64,000 bases of DNA from Allacma fusca (lineage: Eukaryota > Arthropoda > Collembola > Symphypleona > Sminthuridae). The notes under the pieces were generated by a model, which was not told the origin of the DNA, made no database searches, and worked only from the letters and a program-made list of their open reading frames with translations. Positions within the stretch are counted from its first letter, which is position 1; each line of letters starts with the position of its first letter. Below, piece by piece: positions 8,563-59,316 of the stretch. The stretch spans positions 16,926,001-16,990,000 of the forward strand of contig OX359246.1 of the NCBI GenBank assembly GCA_947179485.1, given 5' to 3'. A program made the translations under genes and the position numbers.

Positions 8563-9912
8563 ATGGTTAATATTTTGAGAATAACGATTTGTTTTTGTTG
8601 GCTTGGGGAATATTTCCCAGTTTTAAATCCTTTGAATCCAATTTTTAAATTTGTTTTAAAAAAGATATCCTTAATTTATGCATTTATTCTTTTCTTCATA
8701 TTTTTTACCGGAGTAGACTTCATCAACAATTTACTCACTTGGCAGTATAAAAAATCCCTGAATCACACAACCGCCATGTTTACAACATACGTCACTACTT
8801 ATCATATACAGACAGCATTTGTTTTTGTAACGAGGTTAAATTCCTTATATTATTGCACTAAATTAATGGATTTATTTAGAGAGCTGAATTTTGTTCAAGA
8901 AAGCATTAAAGCAAAATTTAATAATCAGGGAAATTTAAATCAATGGATCTACAGCGGGAAATACTATCTGTTAATTTTGATATCTGCTTTGTTGTATGTC
9001 ATATTCGTGTTTAACAACGTTTTTGTGTCACTTTTCCGTAGTCATTATTTCCTGGTTTGCAACATCGGCTATCATCGTTATTTTGGGCGTCAACCTGCTC
9101 CTGGCACATCAAAATTTTAAGAAACTTTTGGAATCTACAATTGGGGAAAATAATGAAAGATTTGCGATCACAGCTGGGGAAAATTTTCAAAAGTTAAAAA
9201 AATGTTTTAAAAGGTTCTCCAAAATATTTGGAATAATTGGGGACTTCCTTTTGTTATATCTGGGCGTGTCTATTGGCTAGTCCACCTACTTCCTGATTTG
9301 GCCGTGGAATAATGAAAGCGATGTGACCAGTTTGTACGCTTGCGTTTCTGTTCTTGTTGCCATTGTTTCAATTGGAGATGCATTGATTGGCCAGGTCAGT
9401 TTAATATATTTAATAGCACTTTTTAAAAAAACTAAATAAGGAGTTAGTTTTCCAAAAAATACCGTGACAGTGTCTTCAGAAATGCAATTGGGTTTTCAGG
9501 TAAAAATAACATCAGAACAAATGGAGAAATTAGTTTTAGACCTGAAACTAAAATGTACATTTTGAAGCTCTAATGCAAGTTATAAATTAAACTTGGAGTC
9601 GATCACACTCACTTGAAAATTACATTAATAATAATAATTACCACGAATTTGAATCTTTTAGCTCCTCTTAGTTGCAAAATGTGTTGCTAATTGGAAAGAC
9701 AGGATTTCCATCTCGGGCTTTTATGGTATCAATAACAAAACGTATTGTGGGGTATGGTAACTTGTGATATCTAAATTCTATCGAAATTGTAAATCCCATG
9801 TGGAGACAATTAATTTTGGGGTTTCTAGTTCTTGATTGCCCTTCTTGCCTGCATGACGTTGATTGTTCAGCTGGAGAAGTCGGAGAAGGGTGGAGTGTCA
9901 GTTAAAGTATAG
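8563..9912 (+). pseudogene. P-type gustatory receptor pseudogene (P1)
   Basis: Four-exon GR of the plus-strand family: exon 1 8563-9394, exon 2 9500-9574, exon 3 9662-9751, exon 4 9829-9912. The start follows the paralogues (MVNILRITICFCWLGEYFPVLNP). Defects are several. About 30 codons are lost, with a frame shift, near 9035-9045, where the extracellular loop and part of a membrane segment should be. An in-frame TAG sits at 9278-9280 where paralogues have Tyr. A TGA lies in exon 2 at 9563-9565, and exon 2 has a GC donor. Exon 4 still reads ACMTLIVQLE, the C-terminal GR signature, and ends at TAG. It lies tail-to-tail with sugar-like gene C, 725 bp apart. Confidence 0.8.
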
Positions 9913-10636
9913 TATAATTTTGAATATAGAGTCATCGGCCATGTTTTCCATTTTATCGGTGCCAAAACATAATTTTTATTTTCTTTAAAAAGTGAACTGA
10001 ATCATTTTTTGACACATATTTTTTACGTTTAAAATATTGATTGTTCAGACATCGCAGCAGTATGTTTAAAATAAAACTATTATTTGCTATTTTATATTTA
10101 TATTACTCAATCTTGCAATTCATTCTCACCGCCACCATAAGGTACCTATATGAATTTTTGAACATTCATTAATTCACTGTTTTAATTTTAGGTATTTTTT
10201 AACCTAATTAAATAGCTTAAGTAAATTTGCATAACAGAAGGCCGAATATTTTAGCGGTACATATTTCTTTGTAATATTAAGACGTTATATTATAATTTCC
10301 AAGATAACCAATTTGAGCTAAAGGTGTGTGTACCCCCAAAACCCCAATGGAGGTTAACCACTCTATTGTCAGCAAAGTAGATGATTTTACATTTCCCACT
10401 AGTGCAACTATTAACACATTTTCAACCACACATGCATATAAGCAAACTGAGTGCGATACTTTTCAAAATACACATACAATGGCATACACAAAATATTTGA
10501 AATGACAGAATAAATACTTGTTAAAACAATTGTGTTAAAATGACTAATAGGAGTCTAAAATACAGTAGTTATTCAATTACTAAACCTGGATTTTCCAGTG
10601 ACCGAACGTAGAGTTGCGTCATTCCAAATAATACTG
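9913..10636. other. Intergenic: convergent gap between P1 and C
   Basis: No gene. The part from about 10300 matches the 3' flanks of loci A and D. The rest is AT-rich sequence in which I see nothing. Confidence 0.5.
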
Positions 10637-12383
10637 TTATGCTGGGCAGGGAGGTTCATCGGTATTTTGGAGGAGAACAATTTCAAAGGTAAGAACCACA
10701 CTTATTAGTGTGAGCAAAAATGATTTTCTGATCATAAAGAATTTCAATCCTGTCAAGCCTACTTGAGCGGATAGCATTGTAAGTTCCAATCTGTGCATCT
10801 GGATACAAATCAATATAAAATATTAGCTACGTATGACAGTTTTGCAAACGGGTATTGGATTTTATCATAATTTATTCTAAATCTAAATAATTTCGGTTTT
10901 TACGTGAGACAATAATCTTATAAAACATCTTACACCAAGGGAGTACTCCGAGTCCGGGATGTTCCTAATAAGGGTCAAAACATCATTTGCTGAATCGTTT
11001 ACACCTGCTGCAGCTAATGAAGTTAGTCCCACCCGAAATAGCATATGCAGCGATGACCAAATAGAGTAAACATTGTCAATGGTGGAATTGTTGCATGACG
11101 GAGACAACCACAATTTAAGGTGCATGCACATAGCGTAAGTATTTATTGAATAAGACACGAAGACTAGTGGCGAGAGGAATTCTTCAACTTTACTCAACTT
11201 CCGCATTGCCTCGTCATAATCGATCCGCAATTCGTACCATGAGCCTGACGACCCTACAAATTTAAAACGTGTTTCATACTTTCATGGAATTTCTGTTACA
11301 ACTTAGTTATCGAAAGAATTTAGAAAAAAAGTGTCAAATCCGAACTTTTACGATCCGATATGACTTTGAATTGCTTCCTTAGCTCCCGGCTAATGACGTA
11401 GATTAAAACGTCCATGAAGTTCCATGCATACACGAGTACCTTGTTAATGAAGATATAGTACAGCCCAAGAGGCTCGGATTTTGGGTAAAATTTTACCAGA
11501 GCAAATAAACGTGACCATGACACGAGCATTGTGTTGTATGTGCAATCAAGCAAATTTTTGTATTCAACTGCAAACAGTGAAACGAAAATAAAACATTATT
11601 AAATCAAATTAAGGGTTGCACTTAACTCTGACTGTAAAATGCCTTACCATTTTCAGGGCACAATTTAATGTGAAACAGGACGTTCTCCAAAATAGCGGAA
11701 ATCAGTACTGCAATTGGTACAATAAAATTGCCAATGTTTGGAGGGTTAATACTCAAAGGTTCGTCCCAGTCTTCCATTATCCTCACTAATTTGCGGTAAT
11801 TTTTGTCCATATGGATGAAGCTATAAATTATTAGCATATAAAATAAATTTTACTGACTCAACACGTAACAGTGTAATATTTTTAAATAAGGAAATTCATG
11901 TGAATCAAAAACAGTGAACACTTAAACGGACGAAAAAAACTAACATTAATAATCCAAGTGTGTAGAAAGATAGTCCACCCACGGAGAAAGCTAACCCGTA
12001 AGGTGATTTAATGTTTTGCGGAGCAGAAAAAGTACCCAAAATTTCCATTAAGATGTTCAACGCAAACATTGGCACAAGGATGGAACTGAGCCTGAAAAAT
12101 CCGATGAAAGGTAATTATTGACGAAGTTATAAAATTTGTCTGCAATTTGACATTCATTCACGTAGTATGTAATAATCATGTACGTAGATGTGTGTATACT
12201 TGGAATAAACCAAGCACATTGGACGCAATACCTGAATTTCTGAGACATCGGAACAACGCCAATACATTTTCCAAAAGTCAGAACTGGCACTAATGCTAAC
12301 CTGAGGGATTTTTTCCGGAGCATTGGGCCCGACTCGATGTTTTCCTTTATTCGTAAGACTTTCATTTTAAAGCAGGATTGCAT
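10637..12383 (-). CDS. Sugar-like gustatory receptor (locus C), intact
   Basis: Predicted 389-aa membrane chemoreceptor, probably on gustatory neuron dendrites. Minus-strand exons 12232-12383, 11945-12091, 11648-11820, 11352-11567, 10934-11253, 10637-10798; all donors GT, all acceptors AG, phases 2, 2, 1, 1, 0, no stops or shifts. The start is the MQSC methionine shared in position with B and D. Hydrophobic segments fall at about residues 26-45, 52-70, 82-99, 135-154, 190-216, 263-283, 295-319 and 363-383. The WNFMDVLIYVISRELRKQF motif (about 207-225), the WYELRIDYDEAMRKL loop, LTGLKFF and TFEIVLLQ match the conserved blocks of insect sugar receptors in order. It has the cleanest structure in the cluster and was used as reference for the others. 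Ligand specificity cannot be read from sequence. Confidence 0.82.
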
Positions 12384-14910: not shown

Positions 14911-15659
14911 CTCATAACGTTTGTGCTTATAAATCAATTGCTTTGAAAAAATATAGGTACGTATTAAAATTATCCACAAAACAATATGTTTTCCAATTAA
15001 GCAGTATGCGCAATGAGCATATCCTTGAGAACACAGGTAGACAAAGACTACTGATTTTGCAGTACATTCCATAATCCTTACTGTCCCATTATAGCAAATG
15101 ACCATGTGATATCTATTATAGTCACTTTTCGTTAAATCCATTTTTGTTGTTTGAGGTCCAATGGCACGTAACTAATTGGATTTTAACCCTAGCATTATAT
15201 CCACTCGTTCTCAAAAAAGGCTAAAGTATGACTGCAGCTTGAAACATTACAATAGCACATGAAGAAACCATTTCTCAAGTGAGGTGCTTTAACATGGACT
15301 ATTTTTGAGATCAAGGTTGAACATTTTGCTATCTGGGTGGAATAGCTATATTTATTAATGGTGGATTTGACTTTAGTCCAGTCACCCTTCTCATTATCGT
15401 ATTAATAAAAAACACAATTAGTAAAGAAAATAAATAGAAATGTATTGCAAAGGGAAGCAAGGGTCTGGGCGGAGTACTTTTCGTTGCCTAACAATTTGGA
15501 ACTAAAATAACGTGCAAAACAGAGACGTCTCTGTTTTATGCAGCATGTACAATTGTTGCAATTATATTCATCCAAATTGTACATTATATTAATTACCTGA
15601 TTTACCAAAGAACAATCAAGGATCTAACTATTGGCACGTTTGCTATTATTCTCACAGGT

Positions 15660-15900
15660 TTTATTTAATGGAATATACTTTAGTGTTCATAATTAGGATA
15701 TCAACCTTATATTATTGCTATAAATGTATTATTATGAGTTATTTTTATAAAATCTTCAAGCTAGGCCATCAGTTTATTTTCAAATACGGGGCAATTACAA
15801 ACAAACAGGTTTCCAGGGAGTATTTATACTTTTCCGTTGCTTCATCTTTTATTTTATCTGCTTTTGATACGTCAATATTAAAGCAGATTTCAATTACCAT
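15660..15900 (+). pseudogene. P-type gustatory receptor fragment (P3)
   Basis: Middle part of a P-type exon 1. The reading MEYTLVFIIRISTLYYC, then YGAITNKQVSREYLYF and FILSAFDTSIL, aligns to the third and fourth membrane segments and intervening loop of P4 and P6 (EYAFVITTRVLCIYYC, NGAIKKKLVL). Flanking exon parts are missing or unrecognisable, and the tyrosine-rich segment is internally shortened. It lies upstream of, and convergent with, a sugar-like exon-2 scrap at 16181-16274. Confidence 0.6.
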
Positions 15901-16180: not shown

Positions 16181-16274
16181 TATTCTGCAGAACAACAGTT
16201 CACCCATGAAACATCTAAAAGGTGATTTAATATTTTGTAGAACAGAAAAAATATCAAAAATTTCCATAAAGATG
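16181..16274 (-). pseudogene. Sugar-like GR exon-2 remnant
   Basis: Read on the minus strand, this stretch matches exon 2 of D and A: fragments equivalent to EIFDIFSVLQNIKSPF against EILSIIFVPRNIKSPN. Bases are missing after the KSP block and no splice donor remains. No other exon of that locus is recognisable nearby, except possibly scraps swallowed by the satellite that follows. Confidence 0.6.
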
Positions 16275-16312
16275 TCCACTTTACACAGGTGTGTAAAACA
16301 CACGAAATTTAC

Positions 16313-17205: not shown

Positions 17206-17275
17206 AATGAACTTTGTTTTGGAAAACCGCTTTATTCATCTGTTATCTGGGAGGATATTTCATGTCCATTAATAC
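17206..17275 (+). pseudogene. P-type gustatory receptor 5' fragment (P2)
   Basis: The first ~70 bp of a P-type exon 1: WKTALFICYLGGYF matches P4 and P6 almost exactly. An extra base after the ATG puts the start codon out of frame, and homology stops after GGYF, where the sequence switches to the duplicated 3' flank of the sugar-like loci. It points toward gene D, whose stop codon is about 570 bp away. Confidence 0.65.
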
Positions 17276-17845
17276 ATATGTATATGCGGTTAAATTTCGA
17301 ATTGGTTTGTGTTGCAATTTGAACCTTTCAAGTTTCAAGTTTTGGAATTTCAACACTTACAGCAAATCCTCGTCTCCCATTCAATTCATTAAAAGCGTAT
17401 GTACCTTCAAAAACCCACAGGATATTAATCACTCTAATTTCAACGCAAAAGATGTTCTTAAATTTTCAACTAGTGATTTTATTAACACTTTTCAACCCAC
17501 AAACTTATTTGAACATTAGTTTTCCAGTGGTGACACTTTTCACAATGCCAACCTAATGACGTAAAATACACTAAACAACTAAACAGTTACTACATTTTTG
17601 TTATATAAAACACGGATGAACTTATTTTCAATTTTAAAAGCGTTTCAAGTAATTACCTGTACTGAAGACTCTGATGAATCATGATACCTATTGGTTTCCA
17701 ATTAATACTTACAGCCCACTTTAAACAGTAAATTTCTAGTGAACCAATTAAATGTTTAAGACGCTCAAACACAGCAGGAATGTATTTAGCCCTCAAATCT
17801 CCAATAATTATCAAAAGCAAAGTTCTGTTATTCAAAATATTATTG

Positions 17846-19724
17846 TTATGCTGGGCAGGGAGGGTCATCAGTATTTTGGAGGAGGACAATTTCGAAGGTA
17901 AGAATCACACTTATTAGTGCGAGCAAGAATCTTTTTCTGATCGTAAAGAATTTCATTCCTGTCAAACCTACGTGGGCGGATAGCATTGTAAGTTCCAATC
18001 TGTGTATCTGTATACAAATCAATATAAAACATTAGCTACGTTTCAGTAACAGTTTTGCAGTCTTGTATATATAGAATATTCCCAGAATTAACTTAATGTG
18101 TAATTAAATCAACTAACATGTACTCATTAAAAGTAGGACAATAATCGTCAAAGGCAGGAGATAATACAAGGGAAAATTAACGGGAAACCCAGAATTCTGA
18201 ACCAGTAGTTACCATTTCGTCCTTATTGAGGGAACTGTATATTATATATGATCAGTACAGAATCAGGATTTTAAGCAAGACAAAAATCTTACACCAAGGG
18301 AGTATTCCGAGTCTGGGATGTTCCTGATAAGGGTCAAAACATCATTGGCAGAATCGCTTACACCTGCTGCAGCCAATGAGGTTAGCCCCACCCGAACTAG
18401 CAGATGTAGGGATGACCAAATAGAGTAAACGTGGTTAAGGGTGGATTTGTTGCAGGACGGTGTCATCCACAATTTAAGCTGCATGCATATGGTGTAAGTA
18501 TTTATTGAATAAGACATGAACACTAGTGGCGATAGGAATTCTTCAACTTTAGTCAATTTCCGCATTGCCTCGTCAAGATCGGTCCTCAATTCATACCATG
18601 AACCTGATGATCCTACACATTTAAAACGTGTCTCAAGCTGTAATTGAATTACTGCTACAACTACGCTATCGAAATGATTTAGAAAAAAGTGTCAAATTCA
18701 GACTTTTACGGTCCGATATAGCTTTGAATTGTTTCCCGAGCTCCCGGCTAATGACATAAATTAAAACGTCCATGAAATTCCAGGCATACACGAGGACCTT
18801 GTTAAGGAAGATATAGTACAATCCAAGAGATTCGGATTTGGGATAGAATTTTACCAAAGCAAATAAACGTGACCATGACATGTGTAGTCTATGGTAACTG
18901 CAATCAAGGAAGTTTTTGTATGCAGCTGCAAATTTTGAAATGAAATTAAAACATTCGTAAAACAAATTAAGGGTTGCAATTATCTCTGACTGTAAAATGC
19001 CTTACCATTTTCAGGGCACAGCTTGAGATGAAACACGACATTCTCCAAAATGGCGGAAATCAGTACTGCGATCGGTACAATATAATTGACAATGTTTGAA
19101 GAGTTAGTATTCAATGGTTCGTCCCAATCGTTCATTATCCTCACCAATTTGACGTGATTTTTGTCCATGTGTATAATACTACGTTATTTAGAAATAAAAT
19201 AAATTTTACTGAATCCAGGAGTATAGTTAAATTTTGTGAATCGTAAACTGTTAAACGCTTTAACGGAAGACAAAAATTCTAACATTAAAAATTCGAGTGT
19301 GTTGAACAACAGTCCTCCAACGGAGACAGCTAATCCATTAGGAGATTTAATGTTTCGCGGAACAAAAATAATACTCAAAATTTCCAATAAGATGTTTAAC
19401 ATAAACAGTGGCAAAAGGATGAAACTTAGTCTGAAATATCCGAAGAAATGTATTATTACCAAAGTTCTACAATTTATTTGCAATTTGAAATTCATCCACG
19501 TCGTATGTAATAATTACATACGTGGAGGTTTGCATACTTGCAATAAACCAAGCAGAAAACCAGATTCAATACCTGAATTTCCGAAACAAAGGAACAACGC
19601 CAATACATTTTCCAAAAATAAGAACTGGCATTAATGCTAACTTGAGGGATTTTTTCCGGAGCATTGGGCCCGATTCGATATTTTCCTTTATTTGGTAGAC
19701 CATCATTTTCAAACAGGTTTGCAT
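17846..19724 (-). CDS. Sugar-like gustatory receptor (locus D), intact
   Basis: Predicted 389-aa seven-transmembrane chemoreceptor. Minus-strand exons 19573-19724, 19284-19430, 19006-19178, 18710-18925, 18293-18612, 17846-18007, identical in length to those of C, with all splice sites canonical and the frame open throughout. It starts MQTCLKMMVYQIKENIESG, at the same position as C, carries the WNFMDVLIYVISRELGKQF and WYELRTDLDEAMRKL blocks, and ends with TFEIVLLQNTDDPPCPA. It is closest to A and C among the local paralogues. Exon 4 begins with an Ala-Ala pair (AAYKNFLDC) where C has VEYKNLLDC. The 5' flank shares the 'CACTTGAGCTGTCTTTCAAA' block with C, and the 3' flank shares the A/C flank block. 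Ligand unknown. Confidence 0.82.
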
Positions 19725-20414
19725 GAAGTCACTTAAAATCCCTCTGCTGAAATGTACCTTACAAAGTCAGTTCGTCCAAGGCAAGTGAAATAAAAATTCA
19801 TGTGTGACGTAATAGATTTTGAAATAACACGAACTTTTAAAAATATTATAATTTGTGATGGCTGAATAAAATATGTCAGAGCACTTGAGCTGTCTTTCAA
19901 ACCCGACGAGAACAATCTTGAATGGTACTGGCGGCAATTATTTTCACTGTATTTTCTAATGGTACACTGAAAGCTGAATACGCTTTAGCTATTGGGATGT
20001 ATTTTAATTTACTACAAACCAAATAGCAACCGTTGGAGGAGTCGCTATTCACAAGTAAGATGGACCTAATGAGGGACAATTTAGATCGACTCCTAACAAT
20101 ACATGAACATTTCTTTGAAGTAATACCTGATTGTGTATTTATAAGTGCATAGGTAGTTCACGAAACCTCTTTTGAAACATTTGCAAGACGTAATTTGCAT
20201 CGAATTGTCTAGTTTTTTTGTTAATTTAATTACATCATTATTTAAAACGTACAGCTTTGACGCACCAAGGTTAAGACATTAATCAGAAACTGTAAGTTCT
20301 TTGTAAAATTGTAACGCGTGTATATGTATATTTAAAAACACGTCCCTAATGCCAATGCGAGGTACGTTTTAACTATTTTCTTGCTGTTTTGAATTTAGAT
20401 GTTTTTGTAAGTTT
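19725..20414. other. Upstream region of D, no gene recognised
   Basis: Short ORFs only, none conserved or resembling a known family. The first ~180 bp is the duplicated promoter-side flank of D (compare upstream of C); beyond that I see nothing. Confidence 0.45.
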
Positions 20415-20514
20415 TTCTATAAATTCACGTAGTGTAACAAATATAGAATTTCTTCATTTTTAACTCACAACGGTTTTACGATTATTTGTTGCACAATATT
20501 TTTTTGGGTTGCAG

Positions 20515-20589
20515 TTCTCAACGCGGTTCTTAGCTTGCATGACATTTATTATCCAGCTGGAATTGTCAGAGAGGAATAGAAGCGACTAG
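20515..20589 (+). pseudogene. Orphan last exon of a P-type GR (unit 1)
   Basis: An acceptor (TTGCAG) is followed by an open 25-codon exon reading FSTRFLACMTFIIQLELSER and ending NRSD-TAG, matching exon 4 of P4-P7 including the CMTFIIQLE signature. No upstream exons are recognisable within 2 kb, so it is read as the last relic of a deleted gene. Confidence 0.7.
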
Positions 20590-23366: not shown

Positions 23367-23503
23367 AATAGGGTATACCTATTCGAGATAAAGAATCAAC
23401 TCTATATACTAACGTAATGTAACAAATATTCAATTTCAAAACCACCGTAATACCACGTATATTTCGATAATTTGTTACCACAATAATTTTTTGGGGGTTG
23501 CAG

Positions 23504-23570
23504 TTTTCAGTGCGATTTCTACGGTGCATGGCATTTTTACCCAGTTGGAATTGTCAGAGAGGAATAAAAG
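23504..23570 (+). pseudogene. Orphan last exon of a P-type GR (unit 2), frameshifted
   Basis: Duplicate of the exon at 20515. Begins after TTGCAG and reads FSVRFLRCMAFL, then loses one base before the CAGTTGGAATTGTCAGAGAG block, so the QLELSER part is out of frame. It points toward pseudogene E, whose stop codon is 830 bp downstream, keeping the convergent P-type/sugar-like arrangement. Confidence 0.65.
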
Positions 23571-24399
23571 TTACTATGAGTGCTTTATTTGGAAGTTTAC
23601 CAGCGGTTAAGCGTTAAGTTTTCCCCGTCATTAAACTAAAATAACATTGTCCATTTGAAGACTGGTTGAATATTTATTATAATAAAGGAGAATTTTAATT
23701 TAAAATCATCTGAAAAAAGAAAAAACTAAAATTACAATATTTGCGCTGTAATTGTTTGGTAACTAAACATCGTTATATATGAATGTGGAGTAACGTAAGG
23801 ACGAACTAAAAAAGGGCATATTTGTGCAGCCGTCACACTAATGGTTTTTCGTGAATTTTTACTTTGTCGCACTTGTCATTATTCAGCAAACCATGGAATT
23901 GCTGTTGTCATGACTTCATTTGTCACTCCCCAGGTAAACTAGACTTTTTGACATCTTGTTTTACGATTATAAAATGCGGACGACGTGTGTGAGTGATTGC
24001 ATGCGCCCGTGAAACTATTGTTACGTAATTATTTGGAGCGTGGTTTCTTTACGTAATTATCCCGAAAACGGTTTCTTGAAGTAATTATTCTGGCAATAGT
24101 TAATTTCGTTTTGGGAATTATTTTAAAAAAATTAAAGATGAGACGGGGTGGGCAACAGGTCGACCCCAAGCAGTAATTACATGAAATCACTTGATTTCTG
24201 TGATATAAATTATTATTAAAATTGCCATAACTACCAGCACTTAAATAGAAATTATTTGTTAAAATAGTAACAATAAATGGTAATGACGTAATCTTGCTCC
24301 ACTAAAGGCGAAAAACATGTAGTCGTTTAAGAAACAACGTTTTACCTGATACACATTTAACAAAAATATTTTATATTTGTATAGTAGAAGTTAGCTTTA

Positions 24400-28104: not shown

Positions 28105-28539
28105 ATTGTCAGGTGCACAAAGTCTTGAATAGCACGTTTCCAGTCATTTTTTTTTTCAAATTAAAGTAACTACTCGATGGAAATTAATTCGATATGATAC
28201 GTATATACTTTAAACTATTATATTTTGTGACTTCTAGATCAAATTATCAGCAGACTTGAGATGTCTTTCGAAGTCAAGTGTTTAAATTTGTTACTTTGAG
28301 ATGGACAACTTGTCAAATGGAATGAAGCCAACGAGTGTGTATATAACTTTGAATACAAATATTACTAATAATAATTTTATTATTAATATTGAATTCCGTA
28401 TAATCGTGAAAAGTACTTCCAAACCCATTTTACCGGTTTAATGTGATTTTTTGTTCATTCAAATTATGGAGTTGATGTTAATCTATGTTAATTAATCCAC
28501 GCCATACGTCAAATTATACTTATGTTGCAAACTGCTTTT

Positions 28540-42376: not shown

Positions 42377-43789
42377 ATGGGCTTCATTTGGAAAGCAACT
42401 TTATTCATCTGTTATCTGGGAGGATATTTCCCCGTGCTTAATCCGTTAGAGTCGGATTTCAAATTCGTTCTGAAAAAGAAATCTCTTATTTATGTATTCA
42501 CTTTTGTTGCTCTAATATTCACTCAAATTTTGTATTTCATTAATTTTCTAGCTTACCAAAAGTCCATGCAGGACTCGACAAGTGCCAAGTTCGCTACGCA
42601 TCTTTCACTTTATTTAATGGAATCCGTTTTCGTAATCACTACCCGGATATCATGCATTTACTACTGCAGTAATTTGATTGAGTTGCTCCAAGAACTCAAA
42701 GTTATTCATACGTTTAATCTACAGAACGGGGCAATCAAGAAAAAACTGGTTTTGCATGCAATGGACTATTTATGGATTTCCATTTGCTTCATCTGTTATT
42801 TTATCTACGTTTGTTTCGAAATTCCTTTTGTATATTCATTGTTACAAGAGCAGGACACCATTGGTACAGCGAAATCAACAAATAATTGGGCGAAACTGTA
42901 CTTTGGCATAATCTACTATTATTTGTTGCTTGCGTTCCCGATTTCATGGTTAGCATCTGCTGGATTGATTGTTGGATTGGGTTTGGATCTAACCCGCGCC
43001 CACCAAAATTTAATGAATATTTTGGAAAGTACGAATTGCGCATGTAATGACAATTTAGCCATCTCTTTGGGAATGAATTTTATTAGATTGAAAAACTGTC
43101 ACAAATTGTTCTACAAAATATTTAGCATATCAGTGAATTGCCTCATTGTTTTTCTCGGCTTCTCTTTTGGCTTTTGTATCTACTCTTTGATCTGGCCTAA
43201 GAATGATGAGCATAATTTGTATTACGTAATTAGTTGCGTTTGTTGCCTCCTCGCAGTCATTTCAATTGGAGGCTCAATGACCAAACAGGTGACAAGTTTT
43301 TATAATCAGCACATGATTGTTAAAATATGGGGGAGGGGACTTCATTCATAGGAGGAATAGATCAGTTTTATGCATTTTATAGGTCAAGTTTGCATCCCTC
43401 CATTTGCAAAAACTAGTTTTACGAAAACAAATTGAGATGACGTCGAGCAGTCCTAATGTAACTAAATACTAATTAATTCAAATTTATACTTCTGAAACTA
43501 TGCCCGTATAGTTACCTCTGATGATTTTTACAGCCAATGTTAATTGAGAAGTCAATTGCTAAATGGAATTGGAAGTTTCCACTTGGTAGCCTTTTTGAGA
43601 TAAATAATCAACTCTATACCAAGGTACACTTATAAAAATTCAATCTCAAGTTTGTATCACAAAACAATGGTTTCGATTTAATTTGCTATAAAATAATATT
43701 TTGGGGTTTTGCAGTTCCTGATGACACTCGTGGCATGTATGATTTTCATTGTCCAGCTGGAATTAGTGGAGAGGGATGAAAGGAAATAG
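42377..43789 (+). CDS. P-type gustatory receptor (P6), intact
   Basis: Predicted 383-aa seven-transmembrane chemoreceptor, a near-duplicate of P4. Exons 42377-43288, 43383-43457, 43534-43623, 43715-43789, three phase-0 introns, GT-AG ends. The start is ATG 42377 (MGFIWKATLFICYLGGYFPV); no earlier in-frame ATG exists. It carries GGYFPVLNPLESDFKFVL, ISCIYYCSNLIELLQEL, ISWLASAGLIVGLGLDL, FIRLKNCHKLFYKIFSIS and FGFCIYSLIWPKNDE. Exon 4 reads ACMIFIVQLELVERDERK. Differences from P4 are mainly conservative and the frame is fully open, suggesting both are maintained. Upstream 'AACTAATGGGACATAACTAATGGG' block (interrupted here at 20 bases: AACTAATGGGACATAACTAA) is shared with P4. Confidence 0.8.
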
Positions 43790-45360
43790 AAGTCATTTTT
43801 CCGTTCCGAAAACTCACCGTCAGTGAAAAAAACTTTCGCTAGTGTACAAGGCTTCAAGATTAGATATTTTTTTCAAAATATTATCGTTTTATATTGAGAA
43901 AATAGTTTCAATGAGGAACTTATAAATATATATATTTAATATAGGTATTTTTTTAAATGCATGGTTTAGCTTCGTGTGAGAAAAATTCACGCTGAAATGA
44001 GGGACTACAATACTAATTATTATCATGGCAATGATGAAGCAGTGAACATTTTAAATTGCAGCTTAAATCACTCAAGTTTCAAATTACAATTAAAACTGTT
44101 AAACAATTAAAAGTTTTACATAGTTTAGAACCGATTGTTAATAATTACTTCATTTTCGAGAATGGATTTGGCGATTACCCATTGAAATTGCAAATATCGT
44201 ATGAAATTACTTATTGATACATATGCATGTCATACTAATTATATACCTTATGAGATTATAAATAAATCATGTAAACATGGTAGAAGAATGTATTGTCTTT
44301 GAAGGGTGTAAGCCACTCATTACGTGGGTTTTCGTATATATATAGAAATTAACCTTGAGAAGTCTCTACCCATTGATTCTATTAATACCATAGTAAGAGA
44401 AGTACATTCAATAGTAATATATGTATGTGATTAATTGATAATATAAGTAATTGTGAGTACCTCACAAAGTCAACTGATTTTTACGAGTGACGATAGTTCT
44501 GTCATTAGACCAATTCAATTTAAAACTCCTGCGATGGCATTTTTTTGACAACGAAGATGACTAACATTTGACTACCTAACTAGCATCCGGATATATGTAG
44601 GTAATTATATTACGTTAGAGGTGGGGTCCGGAAGTGAGCTTCTTGAATCTGGCCAGTAAAAACTGTAGACCCGGTCAAGTTTTTCTCGAGTCGTAAATAA
44701 TTACCAATGTCTGATTAAAAAAGGGTTCGTCTTGTAAATAAAAATTCGGACCTGGTTAAGATGTGGCTATAGGGCCTTGAGCTGTTTTCCTTAGCGGGTT
44801 CGGACGGCCTACTTAATTTGGTGCTTTTAAACATTTCGACGAATTTAGTTTCCAGCTCGTGGTATGCCGTGAAATATCCCTACGAAATATTTTCAGGTCC
44901 AAAATCTCACCTGGGTGGTTTTTTAATTTCTATGTTTTCAAAAGACTTGCCATGCTTCAAAGAAGACACAAAATCAAATACATTGCTTTCAGCAAAAACC
45001 AAAATTTCTGGATGATAATACCATATTTTAAATACAAAATACTCAAATTTATCTCAAAGTACGTATGTATATAACTGGTTGTATCTGTATCTCAAGTTTA
45101 TTCTCAGAGAGTTAAGTGAATACACTTTCTCTGCTTGCTGTTTGGGTGTGCCTTTTTACTAGCTTTAATTTCCTCTGCTCACATTTACGTTGTTGACACT
45201 TGACACAAAATCCAATTTTATTGTTTCAACACTAATGATACAAAAAAAAACTTGAAAATATTAGGAACGATGTCTGCACCAGTTGCAAAAAAAAGGTAAA
45301 AAAGCAATACTGTGTTGAAAACGAGCAGATCCATTCTCAACGGACTGGTTATTTGTTATC
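43790..45360. other. Spacer between P6 and P7, duplicated from the P4-P5 spacer
   Basis: No gene. About 44390-45110 aligns with 31100-31680 and 34170-34320. About 45110-45360 aligns with the P5 upstream flank. The shorter, transposon-poor version of the spacer. Confidence 0.55.
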
Positions 45361-49345: not shown

Positions 49346-49884
49346 TCGGTTTAATCAAATTAATTTAAGCTCCTAGTATGCCAGTAAACAAGTTTGCATC
49401 AATTCCGAGCCTCTAAAGCCCGTATTTAAGAAATAGCCTGAGGGCGTACCACCTCCCTTCATCTCGGGACGTCAATGGGGCTCAATCCTGCCAGCAGTTG
49501 CTCATGACTGATTCAGAGTGTTATACCTGAAATGTTTTCCTTGCAAGGACAAATTGATTGAAATATCAGAATGTTCTATAGATCGTATTTACTTATTTTC
49601 ATTTATTTACAACATTTCAGCATTTTTATTAAATTTCCTCTGCGGAAACTCAGGCTACAGTTTGCTAATGCCAATGTATACACACTTAAGTCCACTAACT
49701 GTCCATGTTTTTATTCTTAAAGGAAACGTACAATCACACTAAAGTAACTAACTGTTTACATTTCAATTAAAATACGTCAAAATGCATAATTCCTCAAATT
49801 TCAAAACAAAATATCCGCTAGTAAACAGTTAGGTATGATTGAACATAGATATTTATCTGTATAAGCAGCACAGACGCTTTAATC

Positions 49885-50099
49885 ACGAGTAAATTTTTGA
49901 AAATAACCCTCTTCATTTGCTGTCTATGTGGATATTTCCCAGTGCTTAACCCGTTTAAGCCGAATTTCCAATATGTTCTGAAAAGATTGGTGATGCTTTT
50001 GCGAATCAGATGAAATCCGTTTGACATTTTTAACGCTTCAGGCTTTTTACGCTTGTAGCGTCCACGACTTTCGTTGTCCAGCTGGAGTTGCCGCAGTGA
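49885..50099 (+). pseudogene. P-type gustatory receptor pseudogene with internal deletion (P9)
   Basis: Three pieces of a P-type gene joined together. The start of exon 1 (initiator ATG changed to ACG at 49885, then KFLKITLFICCLCGYFPVLNP and the FQYVLKR block) is followed directly by the end of exon 1 (IGDAFANQ) with the beginning of intron 1, whose donor is AT instead of GT. This is followed by exon 4 (TLVASTTFVVQLELPQ, stop at 50097-50099). Exons 2 and 3 and about 240 codons of exon 1 are gone. 5' and 3' flanks align with those of P10 and P7 respectively. Confidence 0.75.
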
Positions 50100-51769
50100 T
50101 AAAATGTGCTGGGAAGCTTCCACTAAAGGCTATTCATCAACGCTTACAATTAAATTTGAAACGTATTTTCCTGTAATGTAACAGCTTAATTACATCAAAT
50201 CAGCACAGTGTAAGAACACTGATTTTCAGATAAAAATTTGGAAAATACACTGTTAGAAAACTATACGCTGTTTCAGCGCATTTGATATTTGCAAGAGAAT
50301 TATCAGAAAAATACGTTCGGAAAGGAATAACAATGTTGTAAGAAAATTTCTACTTTAAATGATTTAGGATTAATATATTCAGGGATATCGCTGGCTTAGC
50401 ATGTGGTCAGAAAATTACCCAGGTTTATAAATTCTCACGCTGCTGGTGGAATTTCGTTGAATAGCCTATTAAGTTGTCCGTGTAAATATTTCACGATCGC
50501 TGCTTAAGACTCTTGAAGCAAGGAAGAATCGTATCGTCAATGAGAAGACAAATAAAGGTTTTACTAGATCTGGGACTGTTCGTGTTCGGAGTCCATATTT
50601 TCTTTCAGTTAATTTCATTTAGGGCTGATTAAATGTATTTGATAAACGAATAACATAAGGTCTAGTAAGCTTGAATAGTTTTGTGCCGGTCTAGTCAAAT
50701 TCTAATGCTTTATCATATACATATATGACCTTGGTGTTTGTTCCAGCGGTTATTAACCCAGAACATACTGGAATAATGCCACAACTAGCAAACAGTGCAT
50801 TTCAGGTGTGGCACTCGGAATTTCGAAATGTCATCAAAATTGGTTTCCTCCCATCTCAGGTACTACAAAATGTCATGGCTTCCATCTGCAAACTAAATCT
50901 TTGATTTTTTGAAGATTTTGCAAAATTTTAAATTTGTCTTGAAAAATAAAAAATAAAATTTTAAATTGGATTAAAGAAGGGAATTTTACATTTCCTCATA
51001 CATAAATTTCGAGGGACCTGGACAATCCAGTCTATATTTCCATCCTCATCCTTACCTTAAAAATATAATATTTTATGTAAATTAACTATTCATAATAAAA
51101 TGGATTTCACTGAAACCAATTAAAATGTGAAAAATCATCCTTATATATTTAAGCCCAACCGTATTTCTCGCGGGATTGAAACGAAATTTGGTGAGGTGGC
51201 CCAATTCCCAATGCGTGGAAGGGGGCAAACAATTCCGCCTAGACCAGATCGTTACGAAAATTTTAAATTATAATTCCTTTAGCATAATCTCCAAATCGAA
51301 CTAAAATATTACAGTACAAAGATAAACCCCAGAAGGGATTTCCGCTTTTAGCTCCCTGGAAGCGAATAAACCAACTTTGGTTAATTTTGAAATACCGAGT
51401 ACTTCACCTGAAGTGTAATGCTTGTAAGAATCAGTTTGGTTGCAATATCAGAATAGAATTATATAGAATGTATTTATCCATTTCCAACTATTTATAACAT
51501 TCCAGCATTGTCGCTAGTTTTCCTACACAAAAATGCAGGTTGCAATTTGTTAATGGCAATGTATACACATTAGGTCCTTTAACTGCCCACGTTTTCAATT
51601 TTATAGGAAACATTGAACCACAATAATGTAATTAACTGTTTGCATTTCAATTAGATTACGTCAAAATACACGATTCCGACCATATTCAAAACGAAATATA
51701 AAAGTGTGACCAGTTAGGTAGGAATGCTCATAGACATTTATCAGCATAAGCAGCACAGACGTTTTAACC
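50100..51769. other. Spacer between P9 and P10
   Basis: About 50395-50910 is the duplicated 3' flank also seen after P5 and P7. About 51410-51769 aligns with 49500-49884 upstream of P9 (shared TATAAGCAGCACAGACG block just before the start), possibly promoter. Nothing recognised between. Confidence 0.5.
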
Positions 51770-52538
51770 ATGAGTAGTTTTTTGAAAATAACCCTGTTCA
51801 TTTGCTGGCTGGGTGGATATTTCCCAGTGATTAACCCGTTTAAACCGAATTTCCAACTTGTTCTGAAAAACAAATCTGTAATTTATTTCTACAGCCTTTT
51901 CCTCGTGTTATTCACAGTAGGGTCTTATCTTCATAGCTACCAGAAATTGAAAAAAGTGTCTCGAAATTCAGCAACAGCCGTGGTCACTGCTAATTTTGCA
52001 ATTTATATGTCAGAGGGCGCTCTTGTTTTCGTTACTAGAATTTCGTCCATATATTTTTGTTCCGATTTGATTGAGTTGTTTCAAGAATTAAAGCAAATAC
52101 AAGATAGCTTCCGAGTACATTTTAAGATGAAAGGAACCTCAAGTTCCTGGATTTACAAAGGAAAGTATTACCTTATTTTAGCCACCTCTGTTTTATTGTA
52201 TGTCATTTGTATCCAGGATGTCTTATTTACGTATTTAAGCACCAGGCATCGTACGTCTTCGAAGGGAAGATTATCAGAATTTGCGTATATTTACATCGTG
52301 GTGACTGTGCCTATTGCATGGTTAGCAACGGCAGGACTCATCGTTGGAATGGGGTTACGTCTACTCCAGACACTTCACAATTTTAGGACACTTTTAGAAT
52401 TGAGTATTCGGAAAGATAATAATGTTTTAGTTACTTCAGTTGGGGAAAATTTTATCAAATTAAAGAAATGCTTTAGAATGTTTTCCAGAATATTTGGAAT
52501 ATCTGGGACCTTCCTTCTTTTTTTCCTGGGTGTTTCTG

Positions 52539-52569
<31 letters not shown>

Positions 52570-53588
52570 ATCTTTATTGTCTTTCAGCCTTATGACTATA
52601 ACAATTTTTTAGTATCTGCATTTCATGTTAATTGGTTGGGACGCAGCCCCTTAACCTAATTTGCTTAATCTATGGAGGAGAGAGAGCAAGGTAACATAGA
52701 AGGAGATAATATCCCATGACGAACTGAGGGTGCACTGTCTAGCTATGACAGAGGCACACCTATCCCGAAGCATCAGTAAATCCACTCACATTGAAGTGAG
52801 CGTTGGGTGCATGCTAACTAGCAGTACATCCCACAGAACCCAACATCTATCTCTCTCTTTCTCTCACCTCCGCGACACAGGGGCACTGGGCTTTGAAGCC
52901 ATTCCTCAACGATGGTAGTTGAGTACATTCAGTGCTGGACTACTCCTGTGTCCGGGTGTTTCTGTTGGCTATTGCATTTATTTTTTAATATGGCCAAGGC
53001 GGAATGAAAGCGAGTTAACCAATTTTGGTGCTTGCGTTTTATGCCTCATCGCTGTAGCGTCTATGGGAGATGTGATGAGCACTGAGGTAAGTCTATTTTA
53101 ATTTTCAGTGTAAATTTTGCGTTATTTCCGTTTATTTTGTTTTCAGGTGCAAATAACTTCGAAACAATTCAAGAAGTCTTTTTTGAACCAACAACTTCAC
53201 TGTGCTTCTACCAATTGGGATGTATGTTAAAATATTAATTGAACATTATATTCAAATTATTAAAGGTACATATACAGTAAACTCTACTTATAATTACTTC
53301 GTTTAGCTGATTTTAATTACAAAATCTGTCGCTAAGTGGAGTTGGAGGTTTCCGAACTTTGGCGGTTTTCTTATCAATTACAAAATGTCTTCTGGGGTAT
53401 TATAACTTCAACCTTTAATTCACACACTGTATATTTAAACAAACTATTTTCCATGTTTTGCGAATAATTCCTTTTTAATTAGGTTAAAATACTGTGTTTG
53501 TGAATTCCAGTTCTTGCTGGCGCTTGTTACCTGCATGACTTTTATTGTTCAGCTAGAGATGTCTGAGAGAGCTACCACAATGAAATGA
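51770..53588 (+). pseudogene. P-type gustatory receptor disrupted by a retroinsertion (P10)
   Basis: Apart from one insertion this is a complete gene: exon 1 51770-52540 resuming at 52967-53086, exon 2 53147-53221, exon 3 53307-53396, exon 4 53511-53588; phase-0 introns, canonical ends. Without the insertion it would give 377 aa. The start is ATG 51770 (MSSFLKITLFICWLGGYFPV). It carries WLATAGLIVGMGLRLLQ, FIKLKKCFRMFSRIFGISG, FFLGVSV, then after the insert GYCIYFLIWPRRNESE and, in exon 4, TCMTFIVQLEMSERA. A 413-bp poly(A)-tailed element with duplicated target inserted between codons 257 and 258, adding poly-Phe and a stop. No other defect is visible, so the insertion looks recent and could be polymorphic. 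Confidence 0.82.
52541..52953 (-). mobile_element. Poly(A)-tailed retroinsertion (SINE-like or truncated LINE)
   Basis: On the plus strand it begins with a T run (24 Ts counting shared bases, 52539-52562), so the element lies on the minus strand with its A tail at the left. Target duplication GGGTGTTTCTGTT: 52528-52540 and 52954-52966. The body (about 390 bp) has no ORF, as expected of a SINE, but I cannot identify convincing A and B boxes, so a short LINE 3' end is equally possible. GC content and a CT-rich tract near 52855-52870 differ from the host gene. Confidence 0.8.
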
Positions 53589-53761
53589 TAATTTTTTGAT
53601 CATCTAAACCAGTCCATAAAAAGCGACTGAAACGTTTGATGTGAAACTGGTTATTCATCCAGTGAATGTGTTCGAAATTCTTAAATGAAAAGTGAGTAGA
53701 AAGTAGAAATCTAGAAAATTCCTCTTAAATCCCAAATTCCAAAAATATTTTCCAGACTTGG

Positions 53762-53945
53762 TTTAGTAATGAGGGTCAGTTCAACCCGATTCAGTTTTGC
53801 AGTGATGACCAAATGGAGTAGAGACTGTCAATTATGGATTTGGTATCGGACGGAGTCAGCTACAATCAAATTGAAGCTGTATGCACATTGCTAGATTGTT
53901 CATTTCGTAAGATATGAACATTCGTGGGGACGATGATCTTTTAGG
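53762..53945 (-). pseudogene. Sugar-like GR exon-5 remnant
   Basis: On the minus strand this stretch aligns with exon 5 of C, D and F: the region encoding the CMQLKLWLTPS block, the SIWSSL block and the start of the RVGL block is recognisable on the plus strand as 'ATGACCAAATGGAGTAGA' and 'GGACGGAGTCAGC'. It is full of small indels. No other exon of that locus is visible. It sits 170 bp beyond the stop codon of P10, tail-to-tail with it. Confidence 0.65.
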
Positions 53946-55295: not shown

Positions 55296-56737
55296 ATGAG
55301 TAATGTTTTGAAAATAACACTGTTCATTTGCTGGTTGAGTGGATATTTCCCTGTGCTGAACCCGTTCAAACCGAATTTCAGATTTGATCTCCAAAAGAAA
55401 TCACTGATTTATTTTTACACTGTTTGTCTCATATTAGTCACAGAATGGTCCTACATTCATAATCATCAGGTTTTGGCAAGCACGACTCAAAACTCGACAA
55501 CAGCTGTGGTCATAGCAAATTTTGTAATTTATCACGCAGAAGCTACTTTTGTTTTAGTTACAAGGATATCCTCCACATATTTTTGTTCCGAATTGATTGA
55601 GCTGCTTCAAGAGCTGGATCAAGTTCAAGAGAACCTCCGAGTAAATTTTAAGATGAAGGGAAATCCAAGTCACTGGATTCACATCGGAAAATATTACCTT
55701 CTGATTGCAATCTCGTGTTTAATGTATGGCATGTCCATATGGGACATCTTATCTGAGTATTTAAGCACGGGAAATGATACTACACGAAAGGGTGTATTAT
55801 CAAATTTATCGTACGTTTACATCATGTTGACTGGACCGATTGCATGGTTAGCAACTGCAGGGTTCATCGTTGGAGTGGGGCTTAATTTGCTTCAGACATT
55901 GGAGACCTTTAGAAACCTTTTGGAATTTTCAGTTTTGGAAAACAACGACGTCCTGTCAATCTCAGTTGCGGAAATGTTTTTCAAATTAAAAAAATGTTTA
56001 AAGTTGTTTTCAACAATATTTGGAATATCCGGAAACTTTTTACTGTTATATCTGGGCGTATCAATTGGCTATTGCATTTACTTTTTGATTTGGCCCATAT
56101 ATGGTCAGAGCGAGTATCTCAGCGATGCAACCGCCTGCGTTTCATGCCTCATTGCTGTTGTTTCTATGGGGGAAGTTTTGCTCAGTCATGTAAGGTTATG
56201 TTATGTTATTTTGTAATAATTTAGCAATTGCGGTTGCAAAATTCTCCAGTGCATATAAATTATTGATTACATGAAGTAATTTCCCTCATTTTTGTTTAGG
56301 TTAAAACAACGACGATACAAATTAAGAAATCTATTTTGGACCTGCGACTCAACAGAGCATTTACTAACTCAAATGTACGTAAGTGATAGTTGAGGATTAT
56401 ATTGACATAAATTAAAGGCTTCGGTTAAACCTGACTCAACGTGTAATTTTTTTAGATTATTTTAATTTCGAAATCTGTCTCAAATTGGAGCTGGAATTTC
56501 CCAAACTTTGGCGGTTTTGACATCAATAACAAAATGTATTCTTGGGTACGATAATTATTTTAACTTCGTGCGTAGTACCTAAACTCAAACAAAATATTTT
56601 GTCAAGTTATTTATTTTTATTGAATTATTTCTTGTGTATTTCCATAGTTCGTGATGGGTCTTGTTACTTGTATGACCTTCGTTGTCCAGCTGGAGATCTC
56701 AGAGAGAGATACAATGCAACCAAAATGTAAATTGTAA
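55296..56737 (+). CDS. P-type gustatory receptor (P11), intact
   Basis: Predicted 382-aa seven-transmembrane chemoreceptor, closest to P10. Exons 55296-56189, 56300-56374, 56456-56545, 56648-56737; three phase-0 introns with good donors (GTAAGG, GTACGT, GTACGA). The start is ATG 55296 (MSNVLKITLFICWLSGYFPV); the in-frame triplet at 55224 is GTG, and the ATG at 55222 is out of frame and stops at once. Blocks: ISSTYFCSELIELLQEL, AWLATAGFIVGVGLNLLQ, FKLKKCLKLFSTIFGISG, LGVSIGYCIYFLIWP; exon 3 FPNFGGFDINNKMYSW; exon 4 TCMTFVVQLEISERD, with a tail five codons longer than P4. It faces gene F tail-to-tail across 729 bp. Ligand unknown. Confidence 0.82.
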
Positions 56738-57466
56738 TATTTATTGTATATGCCTTGTATGCATTTGTATAACGTTTTGTTAACAATAGACGTCCACATC
56801 TTCCTATTATTAATCAATGTAATTTCAAGAGTCGCTTATTTAAATAAATGGTTTAATATTCTATGAGGATAGTTTTTATCGGGAAGCACGAATACTGAGT
56901 TAACAATTGACTTGGAAGACGCTATGCTGCAGATACCGTGTATTTAAATATTAATCGTGCAAATATTAATCCGTGTTGAATTACCAAATCATTACTATTT
57001 AAAAAACAATTTCAATTTTAAGTTTTTTTTATAACCTGATTAATTAGAAACTAGGAAAAATTAATCCCACAATAATTTTTCTCAAAACCACAAACAGAAT
57101 ATTTACGAATGGCCGTTGGGATCCTTTCTTCATAAACGGGTATTAGATATTTGCATTTAAAAAAACACTTGCTCAATATTTCGGATCGATTTTTGCATAA
57201 ACCTCACCTTAAAATTTTCAGTTAGTTTTCATTAATTATATAAAAAAATGTTTTGCTTACAGCTCCATTTGAGTTTCACATTGACCGTGTAGTAGTGGTT
57301 GGTCAGTTTATGGGTTTAAAAATTCATGACAAAATTGAAAATGCTTAAATACTAAGGCTAATTATATATCTATAGATACTTGCGTTCTCTAATTGTAAGC
57401 TGGAACGAATCAAAGATTTAATTATCCTATTTGTCATGTATAGCTCTTTTATTCTCGAAAATATTT
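56738..57466. other. Convergent gap between P11 and F
   Basis: No gene. Length (729 bp) is almost the same as the gap between P1 and C (724 bp), though I see no clear sequence similarity between the two gaps. Confidence 0.45.
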
Positions 57467-59316
57467 CTATGTTGGACAAGGAGCTTCATCAAAATTTTGA
57501 AGGAGAACAATTTCAAAGGTAAATACAACACTAATCAATGTGAGTAGAAATGTTTTTGTGATGAAGAAACACTTCATCCCCGTCAAGCCCACATGTGCGG
57601 ATTGCACTGTAACTTCCAATCGGTATATCTACAATTAAAACAAAATCGTATTTAATTTATAGACATCATGCGACTTTCATTAGCACATCAGGCGCTTAAT
57701 TATGCAGATCGTACCGCTACCAATGTGGTTAAAGGAATGTGATCAGGTATTTAATTTTTCACATTTTCAGAACATACTCTTAAAAAATGCTCATAATATG
57801 GATAGTCTACAAAAATTAAAAGGTATTTTAGTACTTGGAGAGTTTAAACGGAATTTTCTTACGTCAAGTGAGTACTCCGAATCCGGGCAATTCCTGGTAA
57901 GGACCAACACATCATTAGCCGCCTCATTAACTCTGGCTGCAGCAATTGAGACCAATCCAACCCGAATCAGCAGTTGTAATGATGACCAAATAGAGTACAT
58001 ACTGTCAATGGCGGACATATTATAGGACGGAGTCAGCCACAATTTAAGTTGCATGCACATGGCATAAGTGTTCATTCCGTAGGATAAGAAAATTAAGGGG
58101 GACAGGAATTGTTCCACTTGCACCAGCTTCAACATTACCTTGTCATAGTCGTCCCGCAATTTGTTCCAGGTTTCTGGCGATTCTGCATTTTGATAATCTT
58201 TCATCAGCTGTACTTACCATTCAATTCAAATAATTACAATAACTACAAAATTAAAACTCTTTTGAACCTTCGCGGTCAGATATGACTTGAAATTTTTTCC
58301 TCAGCTCCCGGCTAATGATATAGATCAAAACATCCATGAAATTCCAGGCGTAGACCACGACCTTGTTTGTTAGGATCAAGTACACTGCTAAAGGCTCCGT
58401 GTGGGGATAAAAATTCAGCACAGAAAATGTATGGGGCCAGGCTACGTGCATCCTGTGATAGCTGCAGTCAAGAAAGTTCCTATGTTCGGCTAAAATTCAA
58501 AACGACCAAAAAATTAAGACCTTAATAGAAATTACAAACACATTTTAAAAACAGGCGGGGCCAGTATCTCAAGAGTGATTCATCATACCATTTGCAGGGC
58601 AGGTTTTGATTTGATAGATAATATTCTCCAAAATGGCGGAAATCAAAATGGCAATGGGCGCCACAAAACTTATTCGCTTTGGAGGGTCAAAATTCAAAGA
58701 CTCGCCCCAGTTTTCCATTAGGGTTTCCAATTTGGTGTAGTTTTTGTCCATGTGTCGGAAGCTGTGTATTCAAATTCTTATATTTAATACAAATATTTAA
58801 AGAAATAAATTCAACCTCAAAATTTATATTCTATACAAAAATGCGTCCAGAATATTTTTATTACATCAATAATCCCAATGTGTACAACAACAGACCCCCC
58901 ACCGACGCAGCCAAATCATATGGGGATTTCTTTTTATAAGGAGCAGTAAAAATTCCACATATTTCCATCACGAGATTCACCAGAAACATTGGCATAAGGA
59001 TGTAGCTGAGCCTATAAAATCCCATAAGAGATATGAATGTATTTACTTAAAATAATTGTCAAAACATTTGCTACAAAAAAACAATACAGTACAAAATGTA
59101 TGCGTCTAAAGATTATACACAACCAGGTATTTACAGTAGGAAAAAAGCATGCAGAAATAATTACCTAAATTTTCGGGACAATGGTACGACGCCAATAAAT
59201 TTTCCGAAAATTAAAACTGGTGCGAGGGAAGATTTAAGGGGATTTTTCCTTAGAATTTGGCCAGACTCCATGTCTTTCTTTTTCCTTCTTTTGCAACAAC
59301 CTCGAGGACACTTCAT
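57467..59316 (-). CDS. Sugar-like gustatory receptor (locus F), intact
   Basis: Predicted 389-391-aa seven-transmembrane chemoreceptor, the most diverged sugar-like member here. Minus-strand exons 59165-59316, 58865-59011, 58589-58761, 58274-58489 (or to 58268), 57863-58182, 57467-57628, the same lengths as C. The start MKCPRGCCKRRKKKDMESG is Cys/Lys/Arg-rich, replacing MQSCF of the others at the same distance from the conserved block. Blocks: PVLIFGKFIGVVPLS, WNFMDVLIYIISRELRKKF, WNKLRDDYDKVMLKL, VGLTGMKCFF, TFEIVLLQ. The exon 4 donor is ambiguous: the homologous site is GC (GACC|GCGAAG), while a GT six bases on (GAAG|GTTCAA) keeps the same phase and adds two codons. It faces P11 tail-to-tail. 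Confidence 0.8.

What the first reader, a model, noticed from the sequence alone, without database searches (positions are those of the whole stretch)
8563..59316. Convergent P-type / sugar-like receptor pair as the apparent unit of amplification
Repeatedly a plus-strand P-type GR (or its relic) lies tail-to-tail with a minus-strand sugar-like GR (or its relic): P1/C with 724 bp between stops, P11/F with 729 bp, orphan last exon 23504/E, fragment P2/D, fragment P3/exon-2 scrap at 16181, P10/exon-5 scrap at 53762. Two distant GR subfamilies interleaved this way are best explained by duplication of a mixed pair followed by unequal loss, with the P4-P7 block a later P-only expansion. Overlapping 3' ends could also allow antisense control.
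Basis: partly seen in the sequence, partly recalled or inferred. Interest (0 to 1): 0.8.

Follow-up and report, generated by a model that had tools for sequence, protein, structure and literature searches.

The report
Mixed taste-receptor gene array, half dead
A 64-kb stretch of an animal genome holds two kinds of taste-receptor genes interleaved on opposite strands; it most likely grew by repeated local duplication and decay, and the facing gene pair seems to have been copied in some of these duplications but was not the regular unit.

Summary
The geometry is real. All 8 sugar-type receptor genes or relics (S) lie on the minus strand and all 14 P-type ones on the plus strand; stop-to-stop gaps of 724 bp (P1/C) and 729 bp (P11/F) are exact. 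But with strand fixed by type, every P-then-S neighbour is automatically tail-to-tail: 6 such junctions, 6 head-to-head, and alternation no higher than random order (P 0.23). Evidence for a pair unit is mixed. For: the P1-C spacer recurs beside A, starting 5 bp after the P1 stop, and partly beside D; P10/scrap and P11/F match as pairs with similar divergence. Against: P11-F and P1-C spacers are unrelated; C and D are in one S group, yet D's partner P2 belongs with P4/P6 and a P1+P2 clade is rejected (AU p 0.0018); B/E share their head-to-head side; the P4-P7 block shows no S relic and is no younger than the S duplications; quartet concordance is 3 of 5, reached by 40 of 120 permutations. Best reading: ordinary birth-and-death of a mixed GR array by direct block duplications with shifting ends, deletions, inserts and perhaps gene conversion. 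3' overlap is not supported in P11/F, the one listed pair without visible damage.

The parts
1677..4203 (-). S gene A (relic): no exon 1, exon 2 truncated beside B, exon 5 frameshifted, about 1.1-kb insert at 2291-3377
4287..5955 (-). S gene B, six exons, no stop inside the matched exons
8563..9912 (+). P1, pseudogene (frame change near 9045, in-frame stop in exon 1); stop codon 9910-9912
9913..10636 (.). P1-C convergent spacer (724 bp); 9917-10041 matches A flank 953-1078 and 10306-10486 matches A and D; 10060-10310 not shared
953..1676 (.). A 3' flank: copy of the P1-C spacer whose match begins 5 bp after the P1 stop; no P exon recognised beside it
10637..12323 (-). S gene C, six exons
15549..15853 (+). 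P3 fragment (middle of exon 1)
16184..16289 (-). S exon-2 scrap
17208..17279 (+). P2: first codons of a P4/P6-type gene (match runs upstream to about 17055), joined to mid-spacer sequence of A type that begins at 17262
17852..19664 (-). S gene D, six exons
20359..20582 (+). Orphan P last exon, first copy (20428-20955 and 22166-22348 match 23413-24205)
23506..23607 (+).
24409..27099 (-). S gene E; exon 4 split by an insert at about 25302-26289 with inverted ends
28105..29236 (.). Head-to-head flank of E, copy of the B flank 6060-7955; the match ends before P4 and P1
29579..30990 (+). P4 (exon 1 open)
35173..36575 (+). P5 (exon 1 open)
37112..38011 (+). P8: 3' half of a P10-like gene
42377..43790 (+). 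P6, paralogue of P4
45361..46770 (+). P7, paralogue of P5; the P4-P5 block matches the P6-P7 block
49852..50106 (+). P9: 5' end of a P10-like gene joined to the 3' end of a P5/P7-like gene
51770..53589 (+). P10, exon 1 split by an insert at about 52560-52940
53704..53931 (-). S exon-5 scrap, nearest to F
55296..56737 (+). P11, no damage seen in its four exons (read by eye); stop 56735-56737
56738..57466 (.). P11-F convergent spacer (729 bp), no match elsewhere in the window at E up to 1e-3
57467..59271 (-). S gene F, six exons

Best explanation
This is a mixed gustatory-receptor array in an arthropod-like genome. It began with a linked plus-strand P gene and minus-strand sugar-type gene and grew by birth and death. 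Direct-orientation block duplications with shifting end points copied sometimes S plus a flank, sometimes P genes alone, and probably at least once P and S together. Deletions, inverted-repeat inserts and frameshifts then killed many copies, and the 3' half of B/E looks homogenised by gene conversion. Fixed strands follow from direct duplication, so tail-to-tail neighbours are automatic. Shown: strands, block homologies, relics, rejected P1+P2 clade. Inferred: the founder pair, unequal crossing-over as the exchange mechanism, gene conversion.
For: Homologous blocks differ in content and in ends. A/C/D share S plus convergent-side spacer (C spacer against A flank E 4.6e-44, A against D E 3.3e-15; four piecewise matches, z 9.3 to 39, each 0 of 300 shuffles). 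B/E share S plus the head-to-head flank to 7955/29236, and their match stops at the S stop. P4-P5 matches P6-P7 without S, and a profile search (E up to 1) found no S relic between 29.3 and 51 kb. P8, P9, the two orphan last exons and P2 are P-only pieces; P2 and P9 are fusions. P10/scrap53 and P11/F match as pairs. Duplication ages overlap between families: P4/P6 0.24, P5/P7 0.27, B/E 0.18, A/C 0.33, C/D 0.38; then P4/5/6/7 between types 0.64-0.81, P10/P11 0.83, S groups ACD against BE 0.64-0.81. B/E introns 4-5 differ at 22 of 223 sites, but introns 1-3 at 77 of 309 and the outer flank at 266 of 1065 (p about 9e-6 and 2e-7).
Against: The recurrence of the P1-C spacer beside A from 5 bp after the P1 stop, and the matched P10/scrap53 and P11/F pairs, are what a pair unit would give; with heavy loss a pair unit can be hidden. 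The topology test rests on five pairs, short fragments and topologies that I entered by hand, and has little power. No outgroup genome was available.
Confidence: 0.77

Rival explanations
1. The convergent P/S pair is the unit of amplification: each S was copied with the P gene facing it, and unpaired genes are due to loss; C/P1 is then a re-paired exception.
For: Shared spacers A/C/D, in A reaching to 5 bp from the P1 stop; P10/scrap53 and P11/F concordant, dS 0.83 and 0.71; the partners of D and E (P2, orphan exon) both fall in the P4-P7 group, as D and E fall together against F and scrap53.
Against: P1+P2 clade rejected although C and D are in one S group; 3 of 5 quartets concordant, 40 of 120 permutations as good; P1-C and P11-F spacers unrelated; B/E share the other side; no P coding sequence recognised in the A copy; P-only block of the same age.
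Confidence: 0.18
2. The head-to-head side (S then P) is the unit: S was copied together with the divergent promoter region facing the next P gene.
For: B and E share about 1.1 kb of their 5' flank, up to about 60 bp before the P4/P6 promoter match begins; C shares about 300 bp of it.
Against: P1 and P4 flanks are not homologous (z 0.4), and P1/P4 are far more diverged than B/E; A/C/D share the other side.
Confidence: 0.05
3. Facing genes are kept together by selection for antisense control through overlapping 3' ends.
For: More distant AATAAA signals exist: 9980 (-) for C and 56745 (-) for F would let those transcripts reach the 3' region of P1 or P11.
Against: P1 is a pseudogene; in P11/F the nearest AATAAA signals lie at 56843 (+) and 57453 (-), about 600 bp apart; the P11-F and P1-C spacers are not similar.
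Confidence: 0.02

Closest known systems
Tandem arrays of insect gustatory receptors evolving by birth and death (for example Spodoptera littoralis, PMC9339325)
   Same: Clustered relatives, tandem duplication, birth-and-death and a proposed role of transposable elements (abstract and passages seen)
   Different: Here two GR subfamilies on opposite strands are interleaved, with chimeric relics; I did not check whether such mixtures occur in that genome
Insect sugar-receptor clusters (Gr64a-f, Gr61a; PMC2667405)
   Same: S genes belong to this subfamily by Pfam and nearest PDB relatives; passages seen report a gene complex duplicated in D. [quoted passage not shown]
   Different: The cases in the passages seen concern sugar receptors only, not a mixture with another GR subfamily

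Membership tests
Insect sugar/trehalose receptors (PF06151) | Curated Pfam score reached | tested here: met
   F (exon-joined) 132 bits, C exon 5 alone 54 bits, F exon 5 alone 51 bits, cut-off 21; A, B, D and E filed by homology to these
Insect sugar/trehalose receptors (PF06151) | Responds to sugars | not testable with these tools
   none
Gustatory receptor superfamily (PF08395 7tm_7) for P-type | Curated Pfam score reached | tested here: met
   P11 31.8 bits, cut-off 26.6; 2 of 5 P members matched at E up to 10, the rest are filed through 39-40% identity to P11
Gustatory receptor superfamily (PF08395 7tm_7) for P-type | Relative among solved GR structures | tested here: inconclusive
   one GR chain at E 3.1 with P11 alone, none at E up to 1 with the profile of five P proteins
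Gene pair as unit of amplification | Spacer shared among copies | tested here: inconclusive
   met for A, C and D; not met for P11-F, nor for E's spacer against C's
Gene pair as unit of amplification | Concordant trees of partners | tested here: not met
   P1+P2 clade rejected p 0.0018; 3 of 5 quartets, 40 of 120 permutations reach it
Gene pair as unit of amplification | Equal divergence of partners | tested here: inconclusive
   P10/P11 0.83 and scrap53/F 0.71 agree (scrap 40 codons); C/F 1.15 and P1/P11 1.62 near saturation; C/D 0.38 against 2.3 or more between P1 and the P4-P7 group disagree

The most novel reading that the evidence does not exclude
The convergent P-spacer-S cassette was a real, repeatedly copied unit that linked two distant receptor subfamilies, so that sweet-type and P-type receptors were amplified in step; later re-pairing at C/P1 and loss obscure it.
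Probability: 0.18. Interest if true: 0.5.

Novelty: new member of a known kind. Interest (0 to 1): 0.27.

Why it matters
It is a worked example of how a mixed taste-receptor array grows and decays, and it shows that tail-to-tail neighbours can follow from strand-uniform direct duplication rather than from a pair unit. The shared A/C/D spacer and the matched P10/P11 pairs make the residual claim of co-amplified subfamilies testable in the full contig or in relatives.

Tried and rejected
Rejected: detectable homology of the 724-bp and 729-bp spacers (123 of 300 shuffles as good; 95 of 200 with a looser scoring). Rejected: a recognisable P last exon beside A (880-969: 187 of 500 shuffles as good; a match begun inside the P1 last exon still starts only 5 bp after its stop). 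Not shown: a common origin of P 3' flanks across types (P4 with P5, P1 with P4, orphan with P4 at chance; A with P5 z 2.7, 5 of 300; A with orphan z 1.9) or of the P1 and P11 5' flanks (z 2.5, 6 of 300; 24 comparisons were made there, so such values are weak). Rejected: the P4-P7 expansion as later than the S duplications. Inconclusive: the place of P1 (with distant P12 as outgroup, support 41) and of the orphan exons inside the P4-P7 group (with P5/P7 at 65/49; P4/P6 not rejected, AU p 0.37). Odd: P8/P11 dS is 1.93 (wide interval, 116 codons) although P10/P11 is 0.83 and P8 pairs with P10. Led nowhere: whole-genome search (no genome held), a viral-contig scan for sugar-type relatives (none), literature searches for facing GR pairs as duplication units (listings were capped, 20 of 39, 20 of 49 and 12 of 240 papers, and only one open library was searched). 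Not run: the prokaryote, phage, plasmid and E. coli collections, structure prediction, RNA-family tools. The species was not identified; 'arthropod-like' rests on the receptor families.

Full report
What is there. The window is taken to be a eukaryote's (no genome is held for it; genes are split into exons). It carries two receptor families. S genes (A-F) have six short exons (A lacks exon 1) and match the sugar/trehalose receptor family (F 132 bits against a cut-off of 21), with gustatory receptors 64a as the only solved relatives at E up to 1. P genes have one long first exon and three short 3' exons (read by eye) and match the general chemosensory receptor family (P11 31.8 bits against 26.6). 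All S units are on the minus strand and all P units on the plus strand.

Why the geometry proves little. If all P are plus and all S minus, each P followed by an S must be tail-to-tail and each S followed by a P head-to-head. In the order SSPSPSPSPPSPPPPPPPSPS (21 units, the distant P12 left out) there are 6 of each, and 13 type runs against a mean of 10.9 in shuffles (P 0.23). The orientation needs an explanation (direct duplications from one linked founder pair, inferred); the pairing as such does not.

Flank evidence. A profile search of each spacer against the window showed that the P1-C spacer recurs beside A (9939-10645 against 970-1679, E 4.6e-44) and in part beside D. Tested piece by piece against dinucleotide shuffles: C 9917-10041 against A 953-1078, z 9.3; C 10306-10475 against A, z 39; C 10319-10486 against D, z 24; A 1177-1318 against D 17262-17408, z 37; each 0 of 300. 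C 10060-10310 is not shared (215 of 300 against A, 149 of 300 against D as good by chance). When the search is begun inside or before the P1 last exon, the match with A still starts at 9917, 5 bp after the P1 stop, with 86 of 118 identical sites; A shows no P exon to its left but an inverted-repeat element at 6-877. So the A/C duplication reached the P side of the spacer, but P coding sequence is not seen in the A copy. The P11-F spacer matches nothing else in the window at E up to 1e-3, and its best alignment with the P1-C spacer is matched by 123 of 300 shuffles. B and E instead share their 5' flank as far as 7955 and 29236, with the match ending at the S stop.

Trees and ages. S forms the groups (A,C,D), (B,E) and (F,scrap53); within the first, order is not firm, C standing nearer to the rest in the six-gene tree (93). 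P exon 1: P1, ((P4,P6),(P5,P7)), ((P10,P8),P11). P2 groups with P4 and P6 (99/99), and holding it with P1 is rejected, AU p 0.0018. The orphan last exons group with the P4-P7 set (100/99); holding them with P1 or with P10/P11 is rejected (AU p 0.0009 each). With five usable pairs (C/P1, D/P2, E/orphan, F/P11, scrap53/P10; scrap16/P3 left out because both are short and weakly placed) and the topologies entered by hand, 3 of 5 quartets agree, and 40 of 120 relabellings do as well. Synonymous distances: P4/P6 0.24, P5/P7 0.27, B/E 0.18, A/C 0.33, A/D 0.35, C/D 0.38; an older layer with P4/P5, P6/P7 and P4/P7 0.64-0.81, P10/P11 0.83, ACD against BE 0.64-0.81 and F/scrap53 0.71 (40 codons); and a deep layer (F against A-E 1.15-1.29; P groups 1.5 or more, near saturation). 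P8/P10 is 0.46, but P8/P11 1.93, which does not fit neatly. The P-only block is therefore as old as the S duplications, not later. The layers are compatible with blocks that carried both families, but do not show it.

Other traces of exchange. P2 is the first codons of a P4/P6-type gene joined to mid-spacer sequence. P9 is a P10-like 5' end joined to a P5/P7-like 3' end. A is cut inside exon 2 about 70 bp from B's stop. B/E introns 4-5 differ at 22 of 223 sites but introns 1-3 at 77 of 309 and the outer flank at 266 of 1065 (p 9e-6 and 2e-7), which fits gene conversion of the 3' half (inference). Of 27 block edges that I listed by hand, 5 lie within 100 bp of the edge of one of nine inverted-repeat elements (mean 1.5 by chance, P 0.023); since both lists are hand-made and an insert can itself end a match, this is a lead only.

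Antisense idea. The stops are 724 and 729 bp apart. In P11/F, where I saw no damage, the nearest AATAAA lies 106 bp after the P11 stop and 14 bp after the F stop, leaving about 600 bp; further minus-strand signals lie at 57422 and 56857 (ATTAAA) and 56745 (AATAAA), so overlap would need F to pass its first signals. P1/C could overlap if C used its signal at 9980, 657 bp downstream, or P1 one of its later ones, but P1 is a pseudogene. No expression data exist here.

Literature. I saw the abstract and passages of PMC9339325, passages of PMC2667405 and of PMC10542623, and only listings of the rest. They describe tandem duplication and birth-and-death in GR families; a passage of PMC2667405 reports a gene complex duplicated in D. 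[quoted passage not shown] Six searches (some listings capped) showed me no report of a facing pair of two GR subfamilies as a duplication unit. Verdict: a known kind of process in a well-preserved mixed array.

Noticed in passing
24397-29236 against 4281-7955: B and E differ by 10% in introns 4-5 but 25% in introns 1-3 and the outer 5' flank, a step that suggests gene conversion of the 3' half.
   Followed up: partly
6-877, 22357-23367, 41211-42063, 50789-51424: Inverted-repeat elements lie within 100 bp of block edges (5 of 27 edges, P 0.023, hand-made lists).
   Followed up: partly
25302-26289 and 27212-28104: Two inserts with inverted ends, one inside exon 4 of E and one upstream of E, absent from the matching places of B.
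   Followed up: partly
49852-50106: P9 joins a P10-like 5' end to a P5/P7-like 3' end.
   Followed up: partly
20637-20676 and 23638-23675: Very weak P first-exon-like matches just after both orphan last exons (E 0.029 and 0.39).
   Followed up: no
63282-63995: A distant P-like stretch (21-26% identity to P1, P10 and P11, no Pfam match at E up to 10) at the right edge, so the array may continue beyond the window.
   Followed up: no
38560-39841: A long array of 12- to 60-base repeats, open in frames on both strands, between P8 and P6.
   Followed up: no
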